The notes under the pieces: model-generated
What the model saw: the letters and a program-made list of their open reading frames with translations, nothing else
What the model was told of the DNA's origin: nothing
Database searches by the model: none
Part shown: positions 1,442 through 61,537 of the stretch, in pieces
Position numbering within the stretch: the stretch's first letter is position 1
Layout: every line of letters starts with the position of its first letter
Made by a program: the position numbers and the translations under genes
Source of the DNA: Paenibacillus sp. MMS20-IR301
Lineage (GTDB): Bacteria > Bacillota > Bacilli > Paenibacillales > Paenibacillaceae
Assembly: GCF_032302195.1 (NCBI RefSeq)
Contig: NZ_CP135275.1
Coordinates: forward strand, 6,167,501 to 6,231,500
DNA length: 64,000 nt
Direction: 5' to 3'

Positions 1442-2293
1442 CTACCGCAGCAGTGCCGGATTTATGGCCGGAACGAGACCTTCGGCTGCAGCCCGGTTCA
1501 GCAAAGCAGAGATTGCACCATAACCGTCATCTCCCAGATTCATGGAGAATTCATTGACGTACAAATCGATGTGCGATTTGGCTACCTCAGGGGAGAGCTC
1601 CTGGGCGTGGCTCAGAACATATTCCTGAGTATCGAGCGGATGGTCCCAGGCATGCTGCAGCGAGCTGCGGATCCAGCCGGTAATGGCTTCATGGTCCAGA
1701 TCCCGGCGGGCAATGATGGCCCCGAGCGGAATCGGCAGACCGGTATCGCTCTCCCACCAGCTGCCCAGATCGGCGAGCAGTTGGAGATTATAGGAAGGGT
1801 AGGTGAACCGTGCCTCGTGAATCACCAGACCGGCATCGATTGCCCCGCTCTGCACCGCAGGCATAATCTCATCAAACGGCATGACGATAATCTCGGCAGG
1901 GTCGCCCGATACCTGCTGCGCTGCCCACAGGCGGAACAGCAGGTAGGCTGTGGAGCGCTCGCTCGGAACAGCGATTTTCCGTCCGGACAGCTCACGCGGG
2001 TGCTTGATGGCACCTGCTCCTTTACGGCTCAGCACCAGCGGGCCGCAGCCCCGTCCGAGTGCGCCTCCGCAGGGCAGCAGCCTGTAGTTATCCAGTACCC
2101 AGGGGAGGGCGGCGTAGGAGATTTTCAGCACCTCGGGCCCGCGGCCCTCTGCGGCCAGTTCATTGGTAATGTTAATATCGGCATAGGTAATATTCAGCGC
2201 CGGCGCATCCGGCACCAGCCCGTGCGCCCAGGCATGAAAGACAAAGGTATCGTTAGGGCAAGGGGAAAACGCAATATTAAGCTCAGCTGTCAT
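1442..2293 (-). CDS. mqnD: 1,4-dihydroxy-6-naphthoate synthase (futalosine pathway)
   Basis: This 283-residue protein matches MqnD: a periplasmic-binding-protein-like fold beginning with FSPCPNDTFVFHA near the N-terminus and GPLVLSRKG further in. In the futalosine route to menaquinone, MqnD cleaves cyclic dehypoxanthinyl futalosine to 1,4-dihydroxy-6-naphthoate. The ATG at 2293-2291 follows directly after the mqnB stop codon at 2296-2294, so the two genes are translationally coupled. Length and lack of a signal peptide agree with the cytoplasmic enzyme. Other pathway genes (mqnA, mqnC, mqnE) are not in this window. Confidence 0.9.
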   Translation of the reverse strand: MTAELNIAFSPCPNDTFVFHAWAHGLVPDAPALNITYADINITNELAAEGRGPEVLKISYAALPWVLDNYRLLPCGGALGRGCGPLVLSRKGAGAIKHPRELSGRKIAVPSERSTAYLLFRLWAAQQVSGDPAEIIVMPFDEIMPAVQSGAIDAGLVIHEARFTYPSYNLQLLADLGSWWESDTGLPIPLGAIIARRDLDHEAITGWIRSSLQHAWDHPLDTQEYVLSHAQELSPEVAKSHIDLYVNEFSMNLGDDGYGAISALLNRAAAEGLVPAINPALLR

Positions 2294-52537: not shown

Positions 52538-54904
52538 TTATTTTGACTTGTGAAAGTAATTTTCCTGCGCCAAAAAAGAATACAGCGCCGCGGTCTGGAG
52601 CGGCCTGCTGATATAGTATCCCTGCAGCTCGTCACTGCCCATGGCCCGCAGCATATCAAGCTGCTCCTCCTGCTCAATTCCCTCGGAAACTACCCGGAGT
52701 CCGAGGTTGTGGCTAAGCTCAATAATCGCTTTGACCAGCACATCAGCCTGCGGCGCAGGTGACAGCTCCGATACGAAGGAACGGTCGATCTTGATTATAT
52801 CAACGGGGAAGCGGCGGAGATAGCTTAAGGAGGAGAAGCCGGTGCCGAAATCATCCAGCGAGATGCGGAAGCCGTGGCATCTGAGCTGCTGCAGTGAGCG
52901 GAAGATGCTGTCGCCGGAGACCAGTACGCTCTCGGTAATCTCCAGCTCCAGGCTGGAGGCGGGCAGCTCGAATTCCTGGAGCAGCTCGAGCAGCAGCTCC
53001 AGTAGCCCGGGCTGCATCAGCTGCAGGGCGGAAATATTGACAGCGGCGGTAAGCTGCAGTCCGCGGCGGCGGAATTCACGCATATCGGAGCAGACCTGGC
53101 GCAGCACCCAGCCGCCGATGCCGATAATGGAGCCGCTGCTCTCCGCCAGCGGAATGAACTCGGCCGGTGAGACATGCCCGTACGAGCCGCTGTTCCAGCG
53201 CAGCAGCGCCTCTACCTTGGATACCTGCAGATTCTGCGCGCCGAGGATCGGCTGGTAATGCACCTCGAACTCGCCTGCGGCCGCTGCGGACAGCAGCAGC
53301 TGGGACAGCACTTTTTTGCGCCGGATGCCTGCCTCAAGCTCCTCGGAATAGCGGTAAACATTGTTACGGCCGGTCTCCTTGACATGGAACATAGCCAGAT
53401 CAGCCTGCTTGACCAGATCATCGGCATCTTCACCATTCTGCGGATAAATGCTGATGCCGATGCTGGCTGTATTGTATAGAAGATGCCCCTTGATGCGGTG
53501 CGGCATAGAGAGGGCTTCCTGAATCCGCGCCAGCTGTGCGTTAGTACTGGCGGTATCAGGAACATCGGAGAGCAGAATGGTGAACTCGTCCCCGCCAAGC
53601 CGGGAGACGATATCCTTCCGCCCGACCACCTGTGTGAGCCGGAAGGCTGTCTCCTTCAGGATGGCATCGCCGAAATCATGGCCCAGCGTGTCGTTCACCG
53701 TCTTGAAATGATCCAGGTCAATGAATACAAGCACCAGCTGCCGGCCCAGCCCCTGAACCGAGGCAATGGCATCATTCAGCTCCGCAAAAAAGAGCGAACG
53801 GTTAGGGAGCTGGGTCAGCGGGTCCAGCATCGACTGCTTCAGCAGCTCATTCTGAACCTGCTCCAGCGAATCAAGCATCCGGTTGAACTCAATCTCCACT
53901 TCGCTGAATTCATCCCTGCCGGAGCTTGCAATCCGGATGGAGAGATCCTTGCTGCTGCCGATGTCGCGGATATTGCTTACGAGTGAGGACATCCGGCGCA
54001 GAATGAAGCGGTTGACGAAGAGAAGGCTTGCTGCAAGCACCAGCAGCATAGCGGCAGAATAGAGCAGCCGGTAGATGCCAAGGGACTTCTGGGTATAGTT
54101 ATACATCTGGCGCGGTTCCTTCAGGGAGATGATGATTCCCGGATCACCGAACAGGTCGTCCACCAGCGTATGAGCCGACATCAGGCTGCCCGTGGCCGGA
54201 CCGCTCCAGACACGCTGGCCGTTGCTCTCGGCCAGAAGCGGCTGGGTGATACGGGAGATCCGGATACTGGAGAACGAATCATCCCAGATTTGTGTAATCT
54301 CATCCTGGTGCAGCATCCGTCCGGCAACGGCCAGGCCAATGACCGGTTTGTCTTTGCTGCGGTTGACTATGGGGGTGAGCGTAATCAGCATAGGCCCCTT
54401 ATCGAGATTCACAATTCCGCTCCTGCTGTCCCTGGCATCCTTCAGGGCAGGCAGACGGCTGTGTATCAGCCTGAAGAGAGACAGCTGTTCCTGTGTCGAT
54501 GGGGTAACGCTTCCTAATGAAGAATCGTAGCTGCCGCCGTAAAGGGCGTTGCCGTTCAGATCCAGCAGGGCAATCATATCAAAACGGTTGATCTCATAAG
54601 TGGCGGGGGTGAAGCTGCTGCGGATGAAGGCGGCGGCGCCGGAATCTGCGGCAGCTGAACCTGTGCCGGACTCGATGAACCGGTAGGTCTCGTCACGGAG
54701 CGAATAATTGAGCAGCCCCGTCCGCATCTCCTGCAGCTGCTTATTGTAGGATTCTACGGCCCTGTTCAGGTTACGCTGCAGCTGCTCCTTATCCAGATTA
54801 TCAAAACGGTTCAGCAGAATTATATGAAGCAAAAGGTATGTAGCGCCGATTCCCAGCACGGCAACGGCACCAATAAATATGATAATTTTTTTGCGGAGTT
54901 TCAT
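52538..54904 (-). CDS. Membrane GGDEF-EAL protein with CHASE4-like sensor
   Basis: The 788-residue protein has two membrane helices (about 7-30 and 280-300) enclosing a large external CHASE4-like region, then HAMP (about 300-355), GGDEF with intact GGDEF and no RxxD site at the usual spacing, and EAL with VEALLRW and EGIEQ. It probably senses an external signal and adjusts cyclic di-GMP. It is transcribed away from the Fur-controlled UbiA operon, whose promoter region it shares. Confidence 0.88.
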   Translation of the reverse strand: MKLRKKIIIFIGAVAVLGIGATYLLLHIILLNRFDNLDKEQLQRNLNRAVESYNKQLQEMRTGLLNYSLRDETYRFIESGTGSAAADSGAAAFIRSSFTPATYEINRFDMIALLDLNGNALYGGSYDSSLGSVTPSTQEQLSLFRLIHSRLPALKDARDSRSGIVNLDKGPMLITLTPIVNRSKDKPVIGLAVAGRMLHQDEITQIWDDSFSSIRISRITQPLLAESNGQRVWSGPATGSLMSAHTLVDDLFGDPGIIISLKEPRQMYNYTQKSLGIYRLLYSAAMLLVLAASLLFVNRFILRRMSSLVSNIRDIGSSKDLSIRIASSGRDEFSEVEIEFNRMLDSLEQVQNELLKQSMLDPLTQLPNRSLFFAELNDAIASVQGLGRQLVLVFIDLDHFKTVNDTLGHDFGDAILKETAFRLTQVVGRKDIVSRLGGDEFTILLSDVPDTASTNAQLARIQEALSMPHRIKGHLLYNTASIGISIYPQNGEDADDLVKQADLAMFHVKETGRNNVYRYSEELEAGIRRKKVLSQLLLSAAAAGEFEVHYQPILGAQNLQVSKVEALLRWNSGSYGHVSPAEFIPLAESSGSIIGIGGWVLRQVCSDMREFRRRGLQLTAAVNISALQLMQPGLLELLLELLQEFELPASSLELEITESVLVSGDSIFRSLQQLRCHGFRISLDDFGTGFSSLSYLRRFPVDIIKIDRSFVSELSPAPQADVLVKAIIELSHNLGLRVVSEGIEQEEQLDMLRAMGSDELQGYYISRPLQTAALYSFLAQENYFHKSK

Positions 54905-55020
54905 GATGTTCCCCTTTAATATTTTTAGACTGAATAGGAAATAAGTACCATCTATAGTAGTGTACCATGATTAGGGAATATTTTGCAGCGTAAATCTCCC
55001 CAAAGTGTCGAAATTTGATG

Positions 55021-55048
55021 TATAATAGTTTAATGATAATCATTATCA
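55021..55048 (+). promoter_or_regulatory. Fur box at the start of the UbiA operon
   Basis: TGATAATCATTATCA (55034-55048) is an exact match to the Bacillus 7-1-7 Fur consensus TGATAATNATTATCA. TATAAT lies just upstream at 55021-55026, so the box covers the expected transcription start. The first gene begins 29 bases later. Iron-dependent repression is therefore likely. Confidence 0.85.
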
Positions 55049-55077
55049 AATAATAATCGAAGGAGTTAAGCAGTGGC

Positions 55078-55998
55078 ATGATCGAAAAATGGAAGATTTT
55101 CAAGAAAGCCTCACGGTTTGGAGTTATTCCGGTTATGCTCATACCTGTTGTCCTGGGAACTGCCGGGGCCTATGTATGGGCGGGGGAATTCCATCCGTTT
55201 TTATTTGTTATAACCTTTGTCGGAGCGGCTGCAGCGCATTTATTCTCCAATATGGTGAATGATTTATGGGATTTCCGTAATGGAACCGATACAGAGGCAC
55301 ATAATACACCTGGAGTTATCTCTACGAACTCCGGTTTTCTGTCGGGAGGCATCATGCGGGAGTCGGTGTTTGCCCTGCTGACCTGGGGACTGCTTGTCAT
55401 CGCGGTCCTGTGCGGGGCCATTCTCAGCCTCTACAGCGGCTGGGAGATTCTCTGGTTCGTAGCGGGCGGTGCACTGATTGCATACTTTTATGTCGCTCCG
55501 CCGCTGCGCTTCGGCTACCGCGGCAAGGGCTACAGTGAGCTTGCCATCTTCCTTGCATTCGGGCTGATGCCTGTACTGGGGGCTTATTTCGTTCAGACCG
55601 GCGGGTTCAGCCTGAAGCCTGTGCTATTGTCCCTGCCGGTCGGGCTGCTGACAACGCTGCTGCTGTTCAATCATCATTTCCTGCACTGGAGAGCAGACCA
55701 GCAGGCGGGGAAACGCTCGCTTGTGGTCGTATGGGGCGAACGCAAGGCGCTCGTCTTCTCCCGTGTACTGCTCTATATCTCTTACGCTTCGCTGATTGTC
55801 TGTGTTCTGCTTGGTGTATTACCTGTGTATGCCCTGCTTGCCCTGCTGACGGTGATTTCACCGCTGCAGGTCTACCGCCGGCTGCAGCCGCAGAATGATT
55901 CAGCGGCCTATCTGCCGCTGATGGGTGCCTCGCAGCAGGCTTCCGTGCGCTGTGGTGTCATTATGGCTGCCGCTCTGCTGCTCCAGGGGCTGCTCTAA
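55078..55998 (+). CDS. UbiA-family prenyltransferase with altered second motif
   Basis: The 306-residue protein has about eight to nine helices and the first UbiA aspartate motif NDLWDFRNGTD (residues 61-71). The second region reads HHFLHWRADQQAGKRS: the last Asp and GKR are kept, but the Asp four residues earlier is His. UbiA enzymes attach polyprenyl chains to aromatic or other acceptors in the membrane. ATG 55078 is preceded by AAGGAG twelve bases away. It is the first gene of a Fur-box operon. It could serve menaquinone (the MqnP step) or a separate pathway. Confidence 0.8.
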   Translation: MIEKWKIFKKASRFGVIPVMLIPVVLGTAGAYVWAGEFHPFLFVITFVGAAAAHLFSNMVNDLWDFRNGTDTEAHNTPGVISTNSGFLSGGIMRESVFALLTWGLLVIAVLCGAILSLYSGWEILWFVAGGALIAYFYVAPPLRFGYRGKGYSELAIFLAFGLMPVLGAYFVQTGGFSLKPVLLSLPVGLLTTLLLFNHHFLHWRADQQAGKRSLVVVWGERKALVFSRVLLYISYASLIVCVLLGVLPVYALLALLTVISPLQVYRRLQPQNDSAAYLPLMGASQQASVRCGVIMAAALLLQGLL

Positions 55999-56037
55999 AT
56001 ATTGCTAATCAACTACATTACAGAAGGCGGGATAACG

Positions 56038-56823
56038 ATGGATAAGAATAAAGCTCTGCCGGAGGCTGAAGCTGTACAGGCTGCACAAGCTGCACCGGTC
56101 AAACAAACGGTTCTCGGAGACTTCCACACGATTCTGAATGAAGGCAAGGTATGGCAAACCGGCGGCTTCAAGCTGCCTGACGGCTCGTTCTGGGCATACC
56201 GCGAGCCCGAGGCGGTAGTGATTGTGCGCGGCGGTTATCTGTATGTACGGGCGCAGCTGAGCCGCCGGAATGATCATGTCCAGATTCTGGACAACGCGAA
56301 GCACATGTATTATTCGGCGCAGCCGGTAGAAGTGCCGGCGGAAGGGGAGATCAGCTTTGAGCTGCAGATCCGAGCCCGTACGCAGGGAACAGCACCGGGT
56401 GATCTGTATGACGGCTACGTTTCGCTGAATCTGCTTGATTTCACGACGGGCGCTGCGCTCGATTTCTTCGCCGGAAATGACATGTATGCCAGCGTATACG
56501 GGATCCTTCCGTTTCCCGGGGTAACGGTTCCCGAGACCGGCGGAACGAAATACTTCTGTATTTTCACGGAGGATACAGACTTCAAGCCGCGCGAATTCAA
56601 CACCTACAAGATTACCTACCACCGGGGCAATAATGAGGCTGTCTTCTATGTGAATGGCCGGGAAGTGCGCCGGGAGCAGAATGTGCCGGTTAAGTTCAAC
56701 AGCTTCACGGTAGCTCTGGGCATTATGACAGAGAAGGACCTGACCCCTGAAGGCAGCGTCTCCGCACACGGACAGACGGTCATCGCCGAATGGTCTCCGG
56801 TAACCATTACAACCTCTGTATAG
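56038..56823 (+). CDS. Lectin-like beta-sandwich protein (possibly DUF6081) between two UbiA genes
   Basis: The 261-residue product has a short polar Ala/Glu/Gln-rich start and then a beta-rich domain (GGYLYVRAQLS, EISFELQIRART, NTYKITYHRGNNEAVFYVNG) that resembles a concanavalin-like jelly roll. It has no signal peptide, so it is probably cytoplasmic. I suspect DUF6081, but this is from memory of the pattern. ATG 56038 has AGGCGGGA upstream, 39 bases after the first UbiA gene. It may bind the substrate or product of the two membrane enzymes; no activity is shown. Confidence 0.65.
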   Translation: MDKNKALPEAEAVQAAQAAPVKQTVLGDFHTILNEGKVWQTGGFKLPDGSFWAYREPEAVVIVRGGYLYVRAQLSRRNDHVQILDNAKHMYYSAQPVEVPAEGEISFELQIRARTQGTAPGDLYDGYVSLNLLDFTTGAALDFFAGNDMYASVYGILPFPGVTVPETGGTKYFCIFTEDTDFKPREFNTYKITYHRGNNEAVFYVNGREVRREQNVPVKFNSFTVALGIMTEKDLTPEGSVSAHGQTVIAEWSPVTITTSV

Positions 56824-56854
56824 CAAAGAGTATCCATATGACTGATAAGGACGA

Positions 56855-57820
56855 ATGGCTGTGAATCTAAAAACATTCTTGAGGTTTGTCGAGCTGCCGA
56901 CCAAGGTGGCCAGTATCCTGCCGCTGCTGCTGGGAACGCTGTATGCCCTGTACCGGTTCGAGGACTTCTATATTCTGCGCTTTGTGCTGATGTTCGTCTC
57001 GCTGCTGAGCTTCGATATGGCAACAACGGCGATCAACAACTATTATGATTTCAAAAAAGCGGCCAAAACCCACGGCTACGGCTATGAAACCCATAACGCC
57101 ATCGTTCATTACAAGCTGAAGGAGAGCACGGTGGTGGCGACGATATCCGTCCTGCTGGTGCTTGCGGTAGGTGGCGGTATTGCCCTGGTCGCAGAGACCG
57201 GACTGATTGTCTTTCTGCTGGGCGGACTGTCCTTCCTGATCGGTATCCTGTATTCCTTCGGACCGATTCCGATCTCGCGGATGCCGCTCGGTGAGCTGTT
57301 CTCCGGCCTGTTCATGGGCTTCGTTATTATCTTTATCTCCGCTTACATTCACTCGGATCAGACGGTGGTGACGCTGCTCTTCCAGGGAGACTGGATCAGC
57401 CTGCGGATTAATTATCTTGAGGTCCTGTATTTATTCTGGTTCTCCGTGCCGGCGATTCTCGGCATTGCCGGGATTATGCTGGCCAACAATATTTGCGATA
57501 TTGAAGAAGATGTGGAGAACCGCAGATATACGCTGCCGGTGTATATCGGGCGCAAGAATGCGCTGCTGCTGTTCAAGCTGCTGTATTATGTTTCCTTTGC
57601 AGATTTGATCGTGCTGATTCTGCTGGGAGTACATCCGGTGCTGGTACTCCTGCTGCTGCTGACACTGGTTCCGCTGCGCCGTAACATTGCCCGGTTCCAT
57701 CAGGAGCAGCATAAGGGCACGACCTTTATTTTATCTGTCCGGAATTTCGTGCTGATGAGTGCGGCGCGGATTGCCGTGCTGGGGATCGCCGTGATCTGGA
57801 GCAGCATTTGGCCCTCGTAG
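56855..57820 (+). CDS. UbiA-family prenyltransferase, MenA-like
   Basis: The 321-residue membrane protein has both UbiA motifs intact: INNYYDF near residues 57-63 and NNICDIEEDVENRRYTLP near 211-228. This pattern resembles 1,4-dihydroxy-2-naphthoate polyprenyltransferases of the MenA type. ATG 56855 sits three bases after AAGGA; GTG 56861 is better spaced and may be the true start. It is 31 bases after the lectin-like gene in the Fur-box operon. Because the window encodes the futalosine pathway, the acceptor could be 1,4-dihydroxy-6-naphthoate, or a different aromatic. Confidence 0.8.
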   Translation: MAVNLKTFLRFVELPTKVASILPLLLGTLYALYRFEDFYILRFVLMFVSLLSFDMATTAINNYYDFKKAAKTHGYGYETHNAIVHYKLKESTVVATISVLLVLAVGGGIALVAETGLIVFLLGGLSFLIGILYSFGPIPISRMPLGELFSGLFMGFVIIFISAYIHSDQTVVTLLFQGDWISLRINYLEVLYLFWFSVPAILGIAGIMLANNICDIEEDVENRRYTLPVYIGRKNALLLFKLLYYVSFADLIVLILLGVHPVLVLLLLLTLVPLRRNIARFHQEQHKGTTFILSVRNFVLMSAARIAVLGIAVIWSSIWPS

Positions 57821-57873
57821 AGATCTGCTGAATTCTGTGATATGGTGACAGTAAGGAAGGAAGGTGTATAACG

Positions 57874-58869
57874 ATGACACAGAAACTTCGCTGGGGAATT
57901 ATGAGCTGTGCACAGATTGCCACGGGCTCGGTAATGCCGGCGATTCAGGAGTCAGAGACCGGAATGATTCAGGCAATCGCCAGCCGTGAGCTGGAGAAAA
58001 GCAGGGCCGTAGCGGCTGAGTTCGGTATTGCGCAGGCATACGGCAGCTATGAAGAGCTGCTTGCTGACCCGGATGTGGATGCAGTCTATATTCCGCTGCC
58101 GAACCATCTGCACTGTGAATGGGTGATTCGGGCGGCTGAAGCAGGCAAGCATATCCTGTGTGAGAAGCCGATTGCGCTGAACAGCAGCGAAGCGGCGCAG
58201 ATGGTAGCCGCCTGCCGGACGGCGGGGGTTCATCTTGCGGAAGCTTATATGTACCGCCATCATCCAAGGATTGTAGAGCTCAGGGATATTATTGCAAGCG
58301 GAGAGATTGGTGCGCTGCGTTCCATCCGTGGAACCTTTACTTATAATGATGCCACCGACACCTCGAATATCCGCTTCAAGTCGGCCTGGGGCGGAGGCTC
58401 GTTGTATGATGTCGGCTGCTACCCGCTTACAGCCGCGCGGCTACTGTTCGGTACAGAGCCGGAGGCGGTAACTGTGCAGGCACTGTTCTCACCGGAGCAT
58501 GATAACGTGGACATGATGGCTTCCGGGCTGGTGGAGTTCCCGGGAGACCGCAATCTGATCTTCGACTGCGGCATGTGGGCATATAACCGCCAGCTGCTGG
58601 AGGTGCTCGGCACACTGGGACGGATTGAGATTCCGATGCCGTTCAATGCCAGATTCGATGATGCTGAATTCATTGTGTATACCGGAGGAGAGAGCCGGTG
58701 TGTGAAGCCTGTCGGCGCGAACCCTTATGTCCAGCAGGCGGATCATTTCGCGGCGGCTGTCTTCAGCGGCAAACGCTGGATTGCCGAAGAGGACCCGGTA
58801 CTCAATATGAAATTGATTGAGACCTGCCTGGAATCAGCACGCAAACGTGAAAGAATCAGCCTGGTCTGA
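57874..58869 (+). CDS. Gfo/Idh/MocA-family oxidoreductase
   Basis: The 331-residue protein has an N-terminal NAD(P)-binding domain (GIMSCAQIATGSVMPAI, then IPLPNHLH) and the family signature CEKPIAL with its catalytic Lys, followed by an AEAYMYRHHPR segment and a C-terminal beta-sheet domain. Members oxidise or reduce sugars, inositols or similar compounds. The ATG follows AAGGAAGGAAGG. It lies 53 bases after the second UbiA gene and could be part of that operon; a hairpin terminator follows. Its substrate is unknown. Confidence 0.85.
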   Translation: MTQKLRWGIMSCAQIATGSVMPAIQESETGMIQAIASRELEKSRAVAAEFGIAQAYGSYEELLADPDVDAVYIPLPNHLHCEWVIRAAEAGKHILCEKPIALNSSEAAQMVAACRTAGVHLAEAYMYRHHPRIVELRDIIASGEIGALRSIRGTFTYNDATDTSNIRFKSAWGGGSLYDVGCYPLTAARLLFGTEPEAVTVQALFSPEHDNVDMMASGLVEFPGDRNLIFDCGMWAYNRQLLEVLGTLGRIEIPMPFNARFDDAEFIVYTGGESRCVKPVGANPYVQQADHFAAAVFSGKRWIAEEDPVLNMKLIETCLESARKRERISLV

Positions 58870-58883
58870 ATTTTCTGCCCCAC

Positions 58884-58926
58884 TGCAAAACGGATACCGC
58901 CCCAGGGCAGTATCCGTTTTGCTTTT
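58884..58926. terminator. Bidirectional terminator
   Basis: GCAAAACGGATACCGCCC pairs with GGGCAGTATCCGTTTTGC and is flanked by T/A runs. It separates the converging oxidoreductase and symporter genes. Confidence 0.85.
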
Positions 58927-58957
58927 ACATATAGATGCTGAGCTTCCGGTTTCCGGC

Positions 58958-60325
58958 TTATACAGCATTCAGGAGAATTTCATCCTCATCGTCCTTGCGG
59001 TTGAAAGCTTCACGGTCAAACTCACCCTCTGAATTGGCAACCAGCAGAGCGGTGACGGCTGTTCCTGTAGCATTAACAGCAGTGCGGCCCATATCAATAA
59101 GCGCCTCGACCCCGGCTACAATCGCAATACCCTCAAGCGGCAGACCGAGTGCGGTCAGCACAACGGTGGTTGAGATGACAGCCGGCCCGGGCACGCCCGC
59201 TACCCCGATGGACGAGATAATGCTGACCAGCACGAGAGTGACATAGTCGGTACCTGTAAGCTGGATTCCATAGACTTGTGCTGTAAATACAGCCACGATG
59301 GCAGGCCATACACCGCCGCAGCCGTTGAAGTTGACCGAAGCGCCGAGCGGAGCAACAAAGCTGGCGATCCGCGGAGAGACATGCAGGCGTTTAGTAATGA
59401 CCTCCAGGTTCACCGGAAGGGTGGCATAGCTGCTTCGGGTTGTGAAGGCGACGGTGAGTGTCGGATACACCTTTTTGAAGAAGCGGAGCGGATTCACTTT
59501 GACCACAAGCAGCACCAGCCCGCCAAAGACCAGAACGAAATGCAGAATCAAAGCGACGTAGGAAGTGACAATAACGCTGCCGAGCTCCTGAAGCGTCTCC
59601 CAGCCGTAGCGGGCCGTAATTCCGGCAATCAGTGCAAATACGCCGTAAGGCGTCAGCCGGATCACGAACTTGACCACCTGATGCAGCACCTGGGTCAGCG
59701 ATTCAATCAGATCGCGTACGGGCTTGACTGCCTCCGGTTTCTTGGAGCCGATCTTAATAATCGCCACCGCGAGGAAAATAGCGAATATAAGCAGCGGCAC
59801 GACCTTGCCTGTAGCGGCCTCGTTGACGGGATTGGACGGAACGAGGTCAAGGATGACCTGGGAGAATGTAGGGATTTCGCGGGCAGTGAAGCCTTCCGGT
59901 ACAGCCTGCTGGATGCCCTTGCCGGGATTGAACAGCAGGGCTATCGACAGTCCGATGACTGAAGCGATTCCAGTTGTCCCGAGGAACCAGGCGAAGGTCT
60001 TGAAGCCGATCTTGCGCAGGTATTCAAGGTTGCTGAGGGAGGAGATGCTGTTCAGTACCAGGATGAATACCAGCGGCACGACGAGCATACGGATCAGGCT
60101 GACATAAATGCTGCCGAAGGTAGTAATGGCATTCGTTTCGAATTCGAAGTATTGAAAAAATATACCGGCGAGCAGACCGATTCCAAGTCCTATAAGCACT
60201 CTGGTACCGAAGCCGACCCGTTTGCGTGCCAGGAAATTCAGAATGGCAAATACGAAGATGGATACTACGAAGCCGTACCAGTTCGTCTCAATGGCTGACA
60301 ATAAGTTGTTGTCGATAGTGTTCAT
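58958..60325 (-). CDS. Dicarboxylate/amino acid:cation symporter (TcyP-like)
   Basis: The 455-residue protein has the DAACS fold: about eight helices, the serine-rich hairpin region TTRSSYATLPVNL, a GASVNFNGCGGVWPAI segment in the substrate site, and VAGVPGPAVISTT and MGRTAVNATG near the end. The NFNGCGG variant differs from the NMDGT of typical glutamate/C4-dicarboxylate carriers and resembles cystine carriers of the TcyP type. It imports an amino acid or acid with Na+ or H+. ATG 60325 lies twelve bases after AGGAGG. Confidence 0.82.
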   Translation of the reverse strand: MNTIDNNLLSAIETNWYGFVVSIFVFAILNFLARKRVGFGTRVLIGLGIGLLAGIFFQYFEFETNAITTFGSIYVSLIRMLVVPLVFILVLNSISSLSNLEYLRKIGFKTFAWFLGTTGIASVIGLSIALLFNPGKGIQQAVPEGFTAREIPTFSQVILDLVPSNPVNEAATGKVVPLLIFAIFLAVAIIKIGSKKPEAVKPVRDLIESLTQVLHQVVKFVIRLTPYGVFALIAGITARYGWETLQELGSVIVTSYVALILHFVLVFGGLVLLVVKVNPLRFFKKVYPTLTVAFTTRSSYATLPVNLEVITKRLHVSPRIASFVAPLGASVNFNGCGGVWPAIVAVFTAQVYGIQLTGTDYVTLVLVSIISSIGVAGVPGPAVISTTVVLTALGLPLEGIAIVAGVEALIDMGRTAVNATGTAVTALLVANSEGEFDREAFNRKDDEDEILLNAV

Positions 60326-60590: not shown

Positions 60591-60751
60591 TTCTGCCGGA
60601 GGGGGGGACGGATGACTGCGCTGCGGGAGCAGCTCATGGCAAGCTGAATGGACTGGACCAAGGGATGTAAAGCGGGGCGCGGACCATGTGTTCCGTTAGG
60701 CCTTTATATGATGAACAAAACTACAGACGAACGAAAGGAAGGGTACCCAAT

Positions 60752-61537
60752 ATGAAAAAGCTTACTGTATCCGTAATTGCAGCAGCAGCAGTCTTCTCCG
60801 CATTGACTTTTGCTGCGGTGTCCGCTAACAAGAAAACTGCTGAGGCTAATCCGCTTCAGGTAAATACCGCTGTTGCAGCCGCAGCTGCAAGTGAGCCGCA
60901 AACCGCCCCGGCTGCCCCGGCGCAAACGGCTGAGCCGGCGGCAGCCGCTCCGGCAGAGACAGCCGCCGCCGAAGCAGCAGCTCCGGAGGCTACCGAAGCG
61001 GCTGCCTCTCCGGCCGCTGCCGCTGGAGTGCAGCCGGCCGCCCAGGCTACAGCGACCCCGGCTGTCGCTGAGGCTCCGGCGGCAGCCGCAGCTCCGGCAG
61101 CGGCTACTGCAGCCGAGCCTAAGAGTGCCGCCGCCGTGAAGACGGCAGCCGCCCGTCCGGAGGCCAGCGCAGCGCCTGCTGTGCAGCCGGCCGCGGCCGC
61201 TGCTGTGAAGCCGCAGGCAACCCAGGCTCCCGCCGCAGTGCAAGTGAGCAGTGCACCGGCAGTCAAGCCGGCTGCAGCGGCCACGGCTGCTCCCGCAGCG
61301 AAGGCAGCAGCTCCGGAGCCTACTGCAGCACCTGCCGCGACCCAGGCTCCGGCGAGATCCGTTACTTTCTCGACAACTGAGGTTGTCAAAGCAAAAGCTA
61401 CCGCTGCACCTGCACCTGCGGCACAGACGAGCACGGCCAGCACTGCACCCCAGCAGTCCGTAAGTGCTCCAGAGCCGGCGGCAGCTGAAGCAGCCCCTGC
61501 CCCGGCGCCTGCAGCCGAGGAAGAGGTATGCCCTTAA
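60752..61537 (+). CDS. Secreted Ala/Pro-rich low-complexity protein
   Basis: The product of 261 residues starts with a signal peptide (MKKLTVSVIAAAAVFSALTF then AVSA). Almost all of the rest is Ala, Pro, Glu, Lys, Thr and Val, in irregular APA/PAA/EAA repeats. It ends in the acidic EEEVCP, with its only visible cysteine second to last. Such extended chains often span the cell wall. ATG 60752 has AAGGAAGGG upstream; the longer frame from 60686 has no signal peptide. It is 69 bases ahead of the thioredoxin-like surface protein gene and probably functions with it. I know of no family. Confidence 0.7.
   Translation: MKKLTVSVIAAAAVFSALTFAAVSANKKTAEANPLQVNTAVAAAAASEPQTAPAAPAQTAEPAAAAPAETAAAEAAAPEATEAAASPAAAAGVQPAAQATATPAVAEAPAAAAAPAAATAAEPKSAAAVKTAAARPEASAAPAVQPAAAAAVKPQATQAPAAVQVSSAPAVKPAAAATAAPAAKAAAPEPTAAPAATQAPARSVTFSTTEVVKAKATAAPAPAAQTSTASTAPQQSVSAPEPAAAEAAPAPAPAAEEEVCP

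What the first reader, a model, noticed from the sequence alone, without database searches (positions are those of the whole stretch)
55021..57820. Fur-controlled operon of two UbiA prenyltransferases around a lectin-like protein
The sequence shows an exact 7-1-7 Fur box (TGATAATCATTATCA) over the expected transcription start. Three closely spaced genes follow: UbiA, a beta-sandwich protein without signal peptide, and a second UbiA. Known: UbiA enzymes prenylate aromatic acceptors and Fur represses iron-uptake or iron-sparing genes. I know of no described iron-regulated UbiA/lectin/UbiA system. Inference: the operon makes a prenylated compound, possibly a modified quinone or an iron-scavenging or signalling lipid, when iron is scarce.
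Basis: partly seen in the sequence, partly recalled or inferred. Interest (0 to 1): 0.8.

Follow-up and report, generated by a model that had tools for sequence, protein, structure and literature searches.

The report
Iron-regulated naphthoquinone prenylation operon
A soil bacterium appears to switch on, when iron is scarce, a small set of enzymes that probably attach a lipid tail to a vitamin-K-like ring and oxidise it without metal, although the cell seems unable to make the usual ring by the usual route.

Summary
The Fur box is exact (55034-55048) and lies 7 nt behind a conserved TATAAT; 6 of the 13 other exact boxes in the genome lie at the 5' end of iron-uptake genes. The operon has four genes, not three: UbiA1, a DUF6081 protein, UbiA2 (a standard MenA) and a Gfo/Idh/MocA dehydrogenase, then a terminator-like hairpin. 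Of 78 genus genomes examined, 58 carry MenA-Gfo; 26 of these 58 keep a perfect box, 0 of 20 lone menA genes do. The box stays with MenA-Gfo in some genomes where UbiA1-DUF6081 is missing. UbiA1-DUF6081 is a separable pair (adjacent in 78 of 80 loci), mostly without a box. The 'lectin' has a lectin/GH16-like fold but belongs to the family of NcnN, which with ActVA-3 is proposed in print to be a cofactor-free oxidase of naphthoquinol-type substrates. The genome has no MenD but has futalosine genes, so two MenA-class enzymes sit in a cell without an evident DHNA supply. Best reading: a Fur-derepressed branch that prenylates a scavenged or alternative dihydroxynaphthoate and oxidises the quinol without iron. 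Regulation, substrate and activity are inferred.

The parts
55021..55026 (+). -10 hexamer TATAAT of the operon promoter
   Evidence: Sequence; a TATAAT-type hexamer (TATGAT in one) lies within 25 nt before the box in 26 of 26 genus operons with a perfect box. The generic promoter scan did not list it; I see no clear -35.
55034..55048 (+). 7-1-7 Fur box TGATAATCATTATCA
   Evidence: 0 mismatches; one of 14 perfect sites in the genome; perfect in 26 of 58 genus MenA-Gfo operons
55078..55998 (+). UbiA1: MenA/UBIAD1-like membrane prenyltransferase whose second motif reads NHHFLHWxxD
   Evidence: PF01040 1e-27; best NCBIfam TIGR02235, below cut-off; UBIAD1 1e-15; motif in 78 of 78 relatives examined
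56038..56823 (+). DUF6081 protein (family of NcnN, proposed cofactor-free oxidases; beta-sandwich)
   Evidence: PF19559 2e-74; model mean pLDDT 73.8; GH16/lectin-like fold; family function from PMC10697411
56855..57820 (+). UbiA2: MenA, 1,4-dihydroxy-2-naphthoate polyprenyltransferase subfamily
   Evidence: NF004752 373.4 bits against cut-off 289
57874..58869 (+). Gfo/Idh/MocA-family NAD(P)-dependent dehydrogenase, fourth gene of the operon
   Evidence: PF01408 and PF22725; nearest solved chains 4had, sugar 3-ketoreductase, also dimeric dihydrodiol dehydrogenase; follows MenA in 58 of 78 genus genomes examined
58885..58927 (+). terminator-like hairpin followed by CTTTT
   Evidence: RNA fold -27.1 kcal/mol, z -7.6; the T-run is only four long and the consensus scan did not list it

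Best explanation
When iron is scarce, Fur leaves its site over the transcription start and the four-gene operon is expressed. MenA (UbiA2) and the MenA/UBIAD1-like UbiA1 attach polyprenyl chains to a dihydroxynaphthoate-type acid that this organism does not appear to make by the classical Men route: either DHNA taken from neighbours, or a related ring from its own futalosine pathway. The DUF6081 protein, of the NcnN/ActVA-3 family, oxidises the quinol or its keto tautomer with O2 and no metal or flavin. The Gfo/Idh/MocA enzyme does an NAD(P)-linked step on the ring or its precursor. The product is a menaquinone-like lipoquinone made without the iron-sulphur enzymes of the futalosine route (MqnC and MqnE, recalled). 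Shown: genes, box, -10, hairpin, conservation, no MenD match, presence of futalosine-type genes. Inferred: regulation in vivo, substrate, DUF6081 chemistry, role of Gfo, iron-sparing purpose.
For: Exact box behind a conserved -10. Among 78 of the 80 genus genomes with menA, the box is perfect in 26 of 58 MenA-Gfo operons and within 2 mismatches in 36 of 58; it is within 3 mismatches in 0 of 20 lone menA; letter-shuffled upstream regions give 0.03% perfect. Of 14 MenA-Gfo operons without the UbiA1-DUF6081 pair 5 have a perfect box, and 1 of 4 that lack only DUF6081. Of 13 other perfect boxes, 6 lie upstream of, or (L153, L158) within the first 50 nt of the longest frame of, siderophore-binding, AraC/binding-protein or FTR1 genes. 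UbiA2 passes the MenA cut-off. No MenD: best 65.8 bits against 244.2; in 197 family genomes MenD is in 2 (E up to 1e-60) and PF02621 in the other 195 (E up to 1e-30); neither MenD genome has UbiA1 or UbiA2. NcnN is listed as a DUF6081 family protein and, with ActVA-3, proposed as a cofactor-independent O2-using oxidase on naphthoquinol-type polyketides (PMC10697411, passages). In Cupriavidus a DUF6081 gene directly follows an NmrA gene, as NcnN works with the NmrA-type NcnM. All 45 DUF6081 genomes among 197 also have UbiA1, 44 of 45 side by side.
Against: 22 of 58 MenA-Gfo operons have 3 or more mismatches in the best upstream site, and 94 of 107 UbiA1 loci do (some genomes are in it twice), so iron control is not general for the pair. 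Of 13 other perfect boxes, 4 are beside genes in which I recognised no iron role and 3 lie inside AraC/binding-protein genes. PMC10697411 itself words cofactor independence with caution. No DHNA uptake gene was searched for; MenB, MenC, MenE, MenF and MqnB, MqnC, MqnE were not searched. The genome already has an MqnP-like enzyme in its futalosine-type cluster and a second elsewhere. UbiA1 is below every NCBIfam cut-off and lacks the first Asp of the second motif.
Confidence: 0.4

Rival explanations
1. The operon makes a dedicated demethylmenaquinone pool for reducing ferric iron outside the cell, working like DmkA of the Listeria/Lactiplantibacillus flavin-based electron transfer system.
For: The genome has a PplA-like lipoprotein (NF041941, 72.5 bits) next to a pyridine-nucleotide oxidoreductase that reads like NDH-2 with a C-terminal membrane extension (my reading), and a polyprenyl synthase nearby. 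PMC9888254 (passages) describes DmkA in such loci and use of exogenous DHNA. A set of genes that in L082 is FecCD-FecCD-ATPase-binding protein lies downstream of UbiA1-DUF6081 in L059, L080, L082, L085 and L090 (family scan on L082 only; in L080 the binding-protein gene is not within the stretch).
Against: The prenyltransferases are not in that locus. PplA is far below its curated cut-off of 325 bits and had no Pfam match at 1e-5. EetA and EetB were not searched. In L. plantarum deletion of dmkA caused a minor drop in DHNA-dependent iron reduction and none in flavin-dependent reduction.
Confidence: 0.2
2. The operon helps keep ordinary menaquinone supplied: MenA and UbiA1 act on the futalosine intermediate 1,4-dihydroxy-6-naphthoate as a back-up to MqnP when iron is short.
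For: Two PF02621 (MqnA/MqnD-type) proteins, MenG, UbiX and an MqnP-like enzyme are present. PMC3914697 (passages) writes of MenA acting on either dihydroxynaphthoate.
Against: It does not explain DUF6081 or the Gfo gene. The futalosine-type cluster has its own prenyltransferase. 133 of 197 family genomes, 195 of which have PF02621, lack UbiA1.
Confidence: 0.15
3. The operon makes a prenylated secondary metabolite or chelating or signalling lipid, with DUF6081 tailoring the aromatic ring.
For: NcnN and ActVA-3 are tailoring enzymes of aromatic polyketides; the Gfo enzyme resembles sugar and ring oxidoreductases.
Against: There is no ring-making gene in the operon, and no neighbour is constant beside the pair: the commonest further protein cluster is in 25 of 80 loci, and its one member scanned is a GGDEF/EAL protein.
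Confidence: 0.15
4. Fur controls only MenA-Gfo as a matter of function; UbiA1-DUF6081 has an iron-independent job and merely rides in the operon in this group.
For: 94 of 107 UbiA1 loci have no site within 2 mismatches upstream; the box persists in some operons where the pair is missing.
Against: In this group the pair precedes MenA in 39 of 58 operons, 20 of them behind a perfect box (3 of the 39 have remnant or broken genes), and iron-transporter-like genes neighbour the pair in some other groups.
Confidence: 0.25

Closest known systems
MenA (1,4-dihydroxy-2-naphthoate polyprenyltransferase)
   Same: UbiA2 passes the curated NCBIfam subfamily cut-off
   Different: Found in a genome without a MenD match and under a Fur box
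UBIAD1 / cyanobacterial-plant MenA (TIGR02235)
   Same: Closest solved relative and best profile of UbiA1
   Different: Below cut-off; the first Asp of the second motif is His in 78 of 78 relatives examined
NcnN / ActVA-3 / Aln6, proposed cofactor-independent oxidases
   Same: NcnN is named a DUF6081 family protein in PMC10697411; the window protein is PF19559
   Different: Paired with a UbiA prenyltransferase, not with an NmrA reductase; no polyketide genes in the operon
DmkA in flavin-based extracellular electron transfer loci
   Same: An extra naphthoate-type prenyltransferase; a PplA-like gene exists in the genome
   Different: Separate locus, Fur box, extra DUF6081 and Gfo genes
GH16 glucanases and legume lectins
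   Same: Beta-sandwich fold
   Different: No GH16 catalytic motif (0 of 33)

Membership tests
Fur regulon of Bacillales | 7-1-7 inverted repeat TGATAATnATTATCA at the promoter | tested here: met
   0 mismatches, 7 nt after TATAAT
Fur regulon of Bacillales | box kept in orthologous operons | tested here: met
   26 of 58 perfect, 36 of 58 within 2 mismatches; 22 of 58 are not
Fur regulon of Bacillales | iron-dependent Fur binding and repression | not testable with these tools
   needs expression or binding data
UbiA prenyltransferases (PF01040) | profile above the gathering score | tested here: met
   UbiA1 97.4 and UbiA2 78.6 bits against 34.2
MenA (NF004752), UbiA2 | curated subfamily cut-off | tested here: met
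   373.4 against 289 bits
MenA, UbiA2 | genome makes DHNA (MenD present) | tested here: not met
   best 65.8 bits against cut-off 244.2; other men genes not searched
MenA/UBIAD1 equivalogs, UbiA1 | above an equivalog cut-off | tested here: not met
   best TIGR02235 127.9 against 225 bits
MenA/UBIAD1 equivalogs, UbiA1 | second Asp-rich motif NNxxDxxxD | tested here: not met
   NHHFLHWxxD in 78 of 78; UBIAD1 has NNTRDMESD in the alignment
DUF6081 (PF19559) | profile above the gathering score | tested here: met
   250.4 against 25.9 bits
NcnN/ActVA-3 oxidases | direct sequence match to NcnN or ActVA-3 | not tested
NcnN/ActVA-3 oxidases | NmrA-type reductase partner beside it | tested here: not met
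   partner here is UbiA1; an NmrA pairing is seen for one of two Cupriavidus genes
NcnN/ActVA-3 oxidases | oxygen-dependent oxidation without cofactor | not testable with these tools
   enzymology needed
GH16 / ConA-like lectin | GH16 catalytic ExDx(x)E motif (recalled) | tested here: not met
   0 of 33 rows
GH16 / ConA-like lectin | beta-sandwich fold | tested here: met
Flavin-based extracellular electron transfer locus (DmkA) | PplA beside Ndh2 in the genome | tested here: inconclusive
   PplA-like 72.5 bits against 325, no Pfam match; neighbour is a pyridine-nucleotide oxidoreductase
Flavin-based extracellular electron transfer locus (DmkA) | the prenyltransferase lies in that locus | tested here: not met
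   UbiA1 and UbiA2 are about 0.96 Mb away

The most novel reading that the evidence does not exclude
An iron-starvation-specific lipoquinone branch: a bacterium that makes menaquinone by the futalosine route switches, under Fur control, to prenylating borrowed DHNA (or an unusual ring) with a MenA plus a His-motif UbiA, and oxidises the quinol with a metal-free DUF6081 oxidase. This would give that oxidase family a role in lipoquinones, outside the polyketide antibiotics where it has been studied.
Probability: 0.25. Interest if true: 0.8.

Novelty: new variant of a known kind. Interest (0 to 1): 0.6.

Why it matters
It would tie iron starvation to a change of respiratory or membrane quinone, explain why futalosine-pathway bacteria keep MenA, and give a function in Gram-positives to an oxidase family studied in antibiotic pathways. 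It also gives a direct test: add or withhold iron and DHNA and look for a new prenylated naphthoquinone.

Tried and rejected
Lectin or glycanase function of the middle protein: the fold matches, the GH16 motif is absent. 3-keto-disaccharide hydrolase: the Pfam match is 15.8 bits against a cut-off of 26.8, tempting with a Gfo/Idh/MocA neighbour but too weak. Constant third neighbour of UbiA1-DUF6081: none in the 80 loci, which are the best 80 of 129 confirmed. UbiA1 without DUF6081: 16 regions from 16 of the 19 such genomes (the other three are), plus two regions of G539 where the genes lie on different contigs; no partner shared by all was seen. Rfam at gathering score: nothing in 54000-60000. 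DUF6081 elsewhere: 3 of 299 phylum genomes, all of the same genus; 45 of 197 family genomes in 8 of 19 genera; plasmids: one Cupriavidus record with two genes. Actinomycete chromosomes could not be searched. Papers: Paenibacillus, Fur box, prenyltransferase, iron limitation (at least 3 of 4 terms): 0 papers; DUF6081: 1 paper; futalosine, Paenibacillus, menaquinone, menA (at least 3 of 4): 230 papers, 10 listed; oxidase names: 6 papers. 'Not described before' rests on these searches of one open library only.

Papers seen: PMC10697411 abstract, outline, introduction and passages; PMC9888254, PMC3914697 and PMC3817097 passages; others as listings. Recalled, from no call: MqnC/MqnE as radical-SAM enzymes, the GH16 motif, the label NDH-2, Fur against Zur/PerR box types.

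Rows dropped: L110 from the alignments (stop codon); the Cupriavidus row from the structure alignment; G062 and G099 not fetched, so 78 of 80 menA genomes were examined. The recount shows that among the 39 'full' operons G026 has only remnants of UbiA1 and DUF6081, G044 and G064 have DUF6081 in two pieces, and G089 ends inside Gfo at a contig edge; the counts are left as they were.
Full report
What is there. The window holds four genes read on the + strand: UbiA1 55078-55998, DUF6081 56038-56823, UbiA2 56855-57820 and a Gfo/Idh/MocA dehydrogenase 57874-58869. Gaps are 39, 31 and 53 nt. A strong hairpin with a short T-run follows. A divergent gene lies upstream (52538-54904); a relative of it in L080 carries GGDEF and EAL domains.

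The Fur box. TGATAATCATTATCA is exact. The genome has 14 perfect sites; at up to one mismatch there are 35 on each strand against 2 for the pattern read backwards. Of the 13 others, 6 lie at the 5' end of iron-uptake genes: siderophore-binding proteins in L154, L157, L158; AraC/binding-protein regulators in L153, L160; FTR1 in L156 (in L153 and L158 the site falls within the first 50 nt of the longest frame, whose true start is probably later). Three lie inside AraC/binding-protein genes (L150-L152), and 4 are beside other genes (L148, L149, L155, L159; those of L155 were not scanned). In 26 of 26 genus operons with a perfect box a TATAAT-type hexamer stands just before it, so the box would cover the transcription start. 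The generic promoter scan did not list this promoter.

Conservation. UbiA2 is in 80 of 100 genus genomes. I examined 78 (76 fetched, the window, and one contig already held). Operon types: UbiA1-DUF6081-MenA-Gfo 39, MenA-Gfo 14, UbiA1-MenA-Gfo 4, DUF6081-MenA-Gfo 1 (near a contig end), menA without Gfo 20. Of the 39, one has only remnants of UbiA1 and DUF6081 and two have DUF6081 in two pieces. Perfect boxes: 20 of 39, 5 of 14, 1 of 4, 0 of 1, 0 of 20. Within two mismatches: 36 of 58 against 0 of 20. Letter-shuffled upstream regions reach 0 mismatches in 0.03% and 2 in 0.3%. So the box goes with the MenA-Gfo operon, and 22 of 58 lack a good one. These species share descent, so the counts are not independent events.

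The separable pair. In the best 80 of 129 named loci with a DUF6081 relative, UbiA1 is adjacent in 78; in 77 of 78 the aligned part of DUF6081 begins within 100 nt of the UbiA1 stop. Outside the close group MenA and Gfo are often not beside it. Over 107 loci (named and unnamed, some genomes twice) the best site upstream of UbiA1 is within 2 mismatches in 13. Among 197 family genomes, 45 have DUF6081, 64 UbiA1 and 64 UbiA2; all 45 DUF6081 genomes have UbiA1, 44 side by side, and 19 UbiA1 genomes lack DUF6081; 28 have both UbiA1 and UbiA2. In L059, L080, L082, L085 and L090 related genes lie downstream that in L082 are FecCD-FecCD-ATPase-binding protein.

What the family does. The one paper in the library that names DUF6081 is PMC10697411. 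It lists NcnN as a DUF6081 family protein, reports that loss of ncnN stops formation of alpha-naphthocyclinone acid and that loss of actVA-3 leaves about 8% of actinorhodin, and proposes that the family are cofactor-independent oxidases that use O2 (passages). NcnN is thought to work with an NmrA-type reductase. On the Cupriavidus plasmid pBB2 one DUF6081 gene directly follows an NmrA gene, and the other lies among genes annotated as homogentisate 1,2-dioxygenase, fumarylacetoacetate hydrolase and FAD-dependent monooxygenase. So ring substrates of hydroquinone type are plausible in both non-Paenibacillus settings seen.

The quinone context. The genome has no MenD (65.8 bits against 244.2). It has two full PF02621 proteins (MqnA/MqnD type): one in a cluster with MenG, an MqnP-like UbiA, UbiX and a polyprenyl synthase, one in this window at 1487-2281. 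In 197 family genomes MenD is in 2 and PF02621 in the other 195. Both MenA-class enzymes therefore sit in a cell that appears to lack its own DHNA. L. plantarum uses exogenous DHNA (PMC9888254), which makes scavenging plausible. MenB, MenC, MenE, MenF, MqnB, MqnC and MqnE were not searched.

Mechanism. I favour a Fur-derepressed branch that prenylates a dihydroxynaphthoate and oxidises the product without metal. Iron-sparing logic fits, because two futalosine enzymes need iron-sulphur clusters (recalled), and neither a UbiA enzyme nor a cofactor-free oxidase is expected to need iron. A dedicated pool for ferric reduction is the strongest functional rival. That UbiA1-DUF6081 simply rides in the operon is the strongest structural rival.

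Noticed in passing
L150 1827, L151 1818, L152 1823 (own genome): Three perfect Fur boxes lie inside AraC/periplasmic-binding-protein regulator genes; in L150 the site falls between the DNA-binding and the binding-protein part.
   Followed up: partly
L300 10782-13623 and L163 2328-5045 (own genome): A PplA-like lipoprotein (below cut-off), a pyridine-nucleotide oxidoreductase with a long C-terminal extension, a polyprenyl synthase and a second MqnP-like prenyltransferase lie near each other; possibly an extracellular electron transfer locus.
   Followed up: partly
L110 6001-6744: The DUF6081 frame has a stop codon and no UbiA1 is found in the locus, consistent with loss of both.
   Followed up: no
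G017 MenA-Gfo operon (L270): Promoter and perfect box are followed by a short start resembling the UbiA1 N-terminus well before MenA, as if UbiA1-DUF6081 had been deleted (by eye).
   Followed up: no
window 1487-2281, - strand: PF02621 (MqnA/MqnD-type) protein of the futalosine menaquinone pathway.
   Followed up: partly
window 60686-61537, + strand: Alanine-rich low-complexity ORF that looks secreted (by eye).
   Followed up: no
L316-L318: UbiA1 without DUF6081 is followed, after one gene, by a protein that reads like a Fur/PerR-family regulator (by eye).
   Followed up: no
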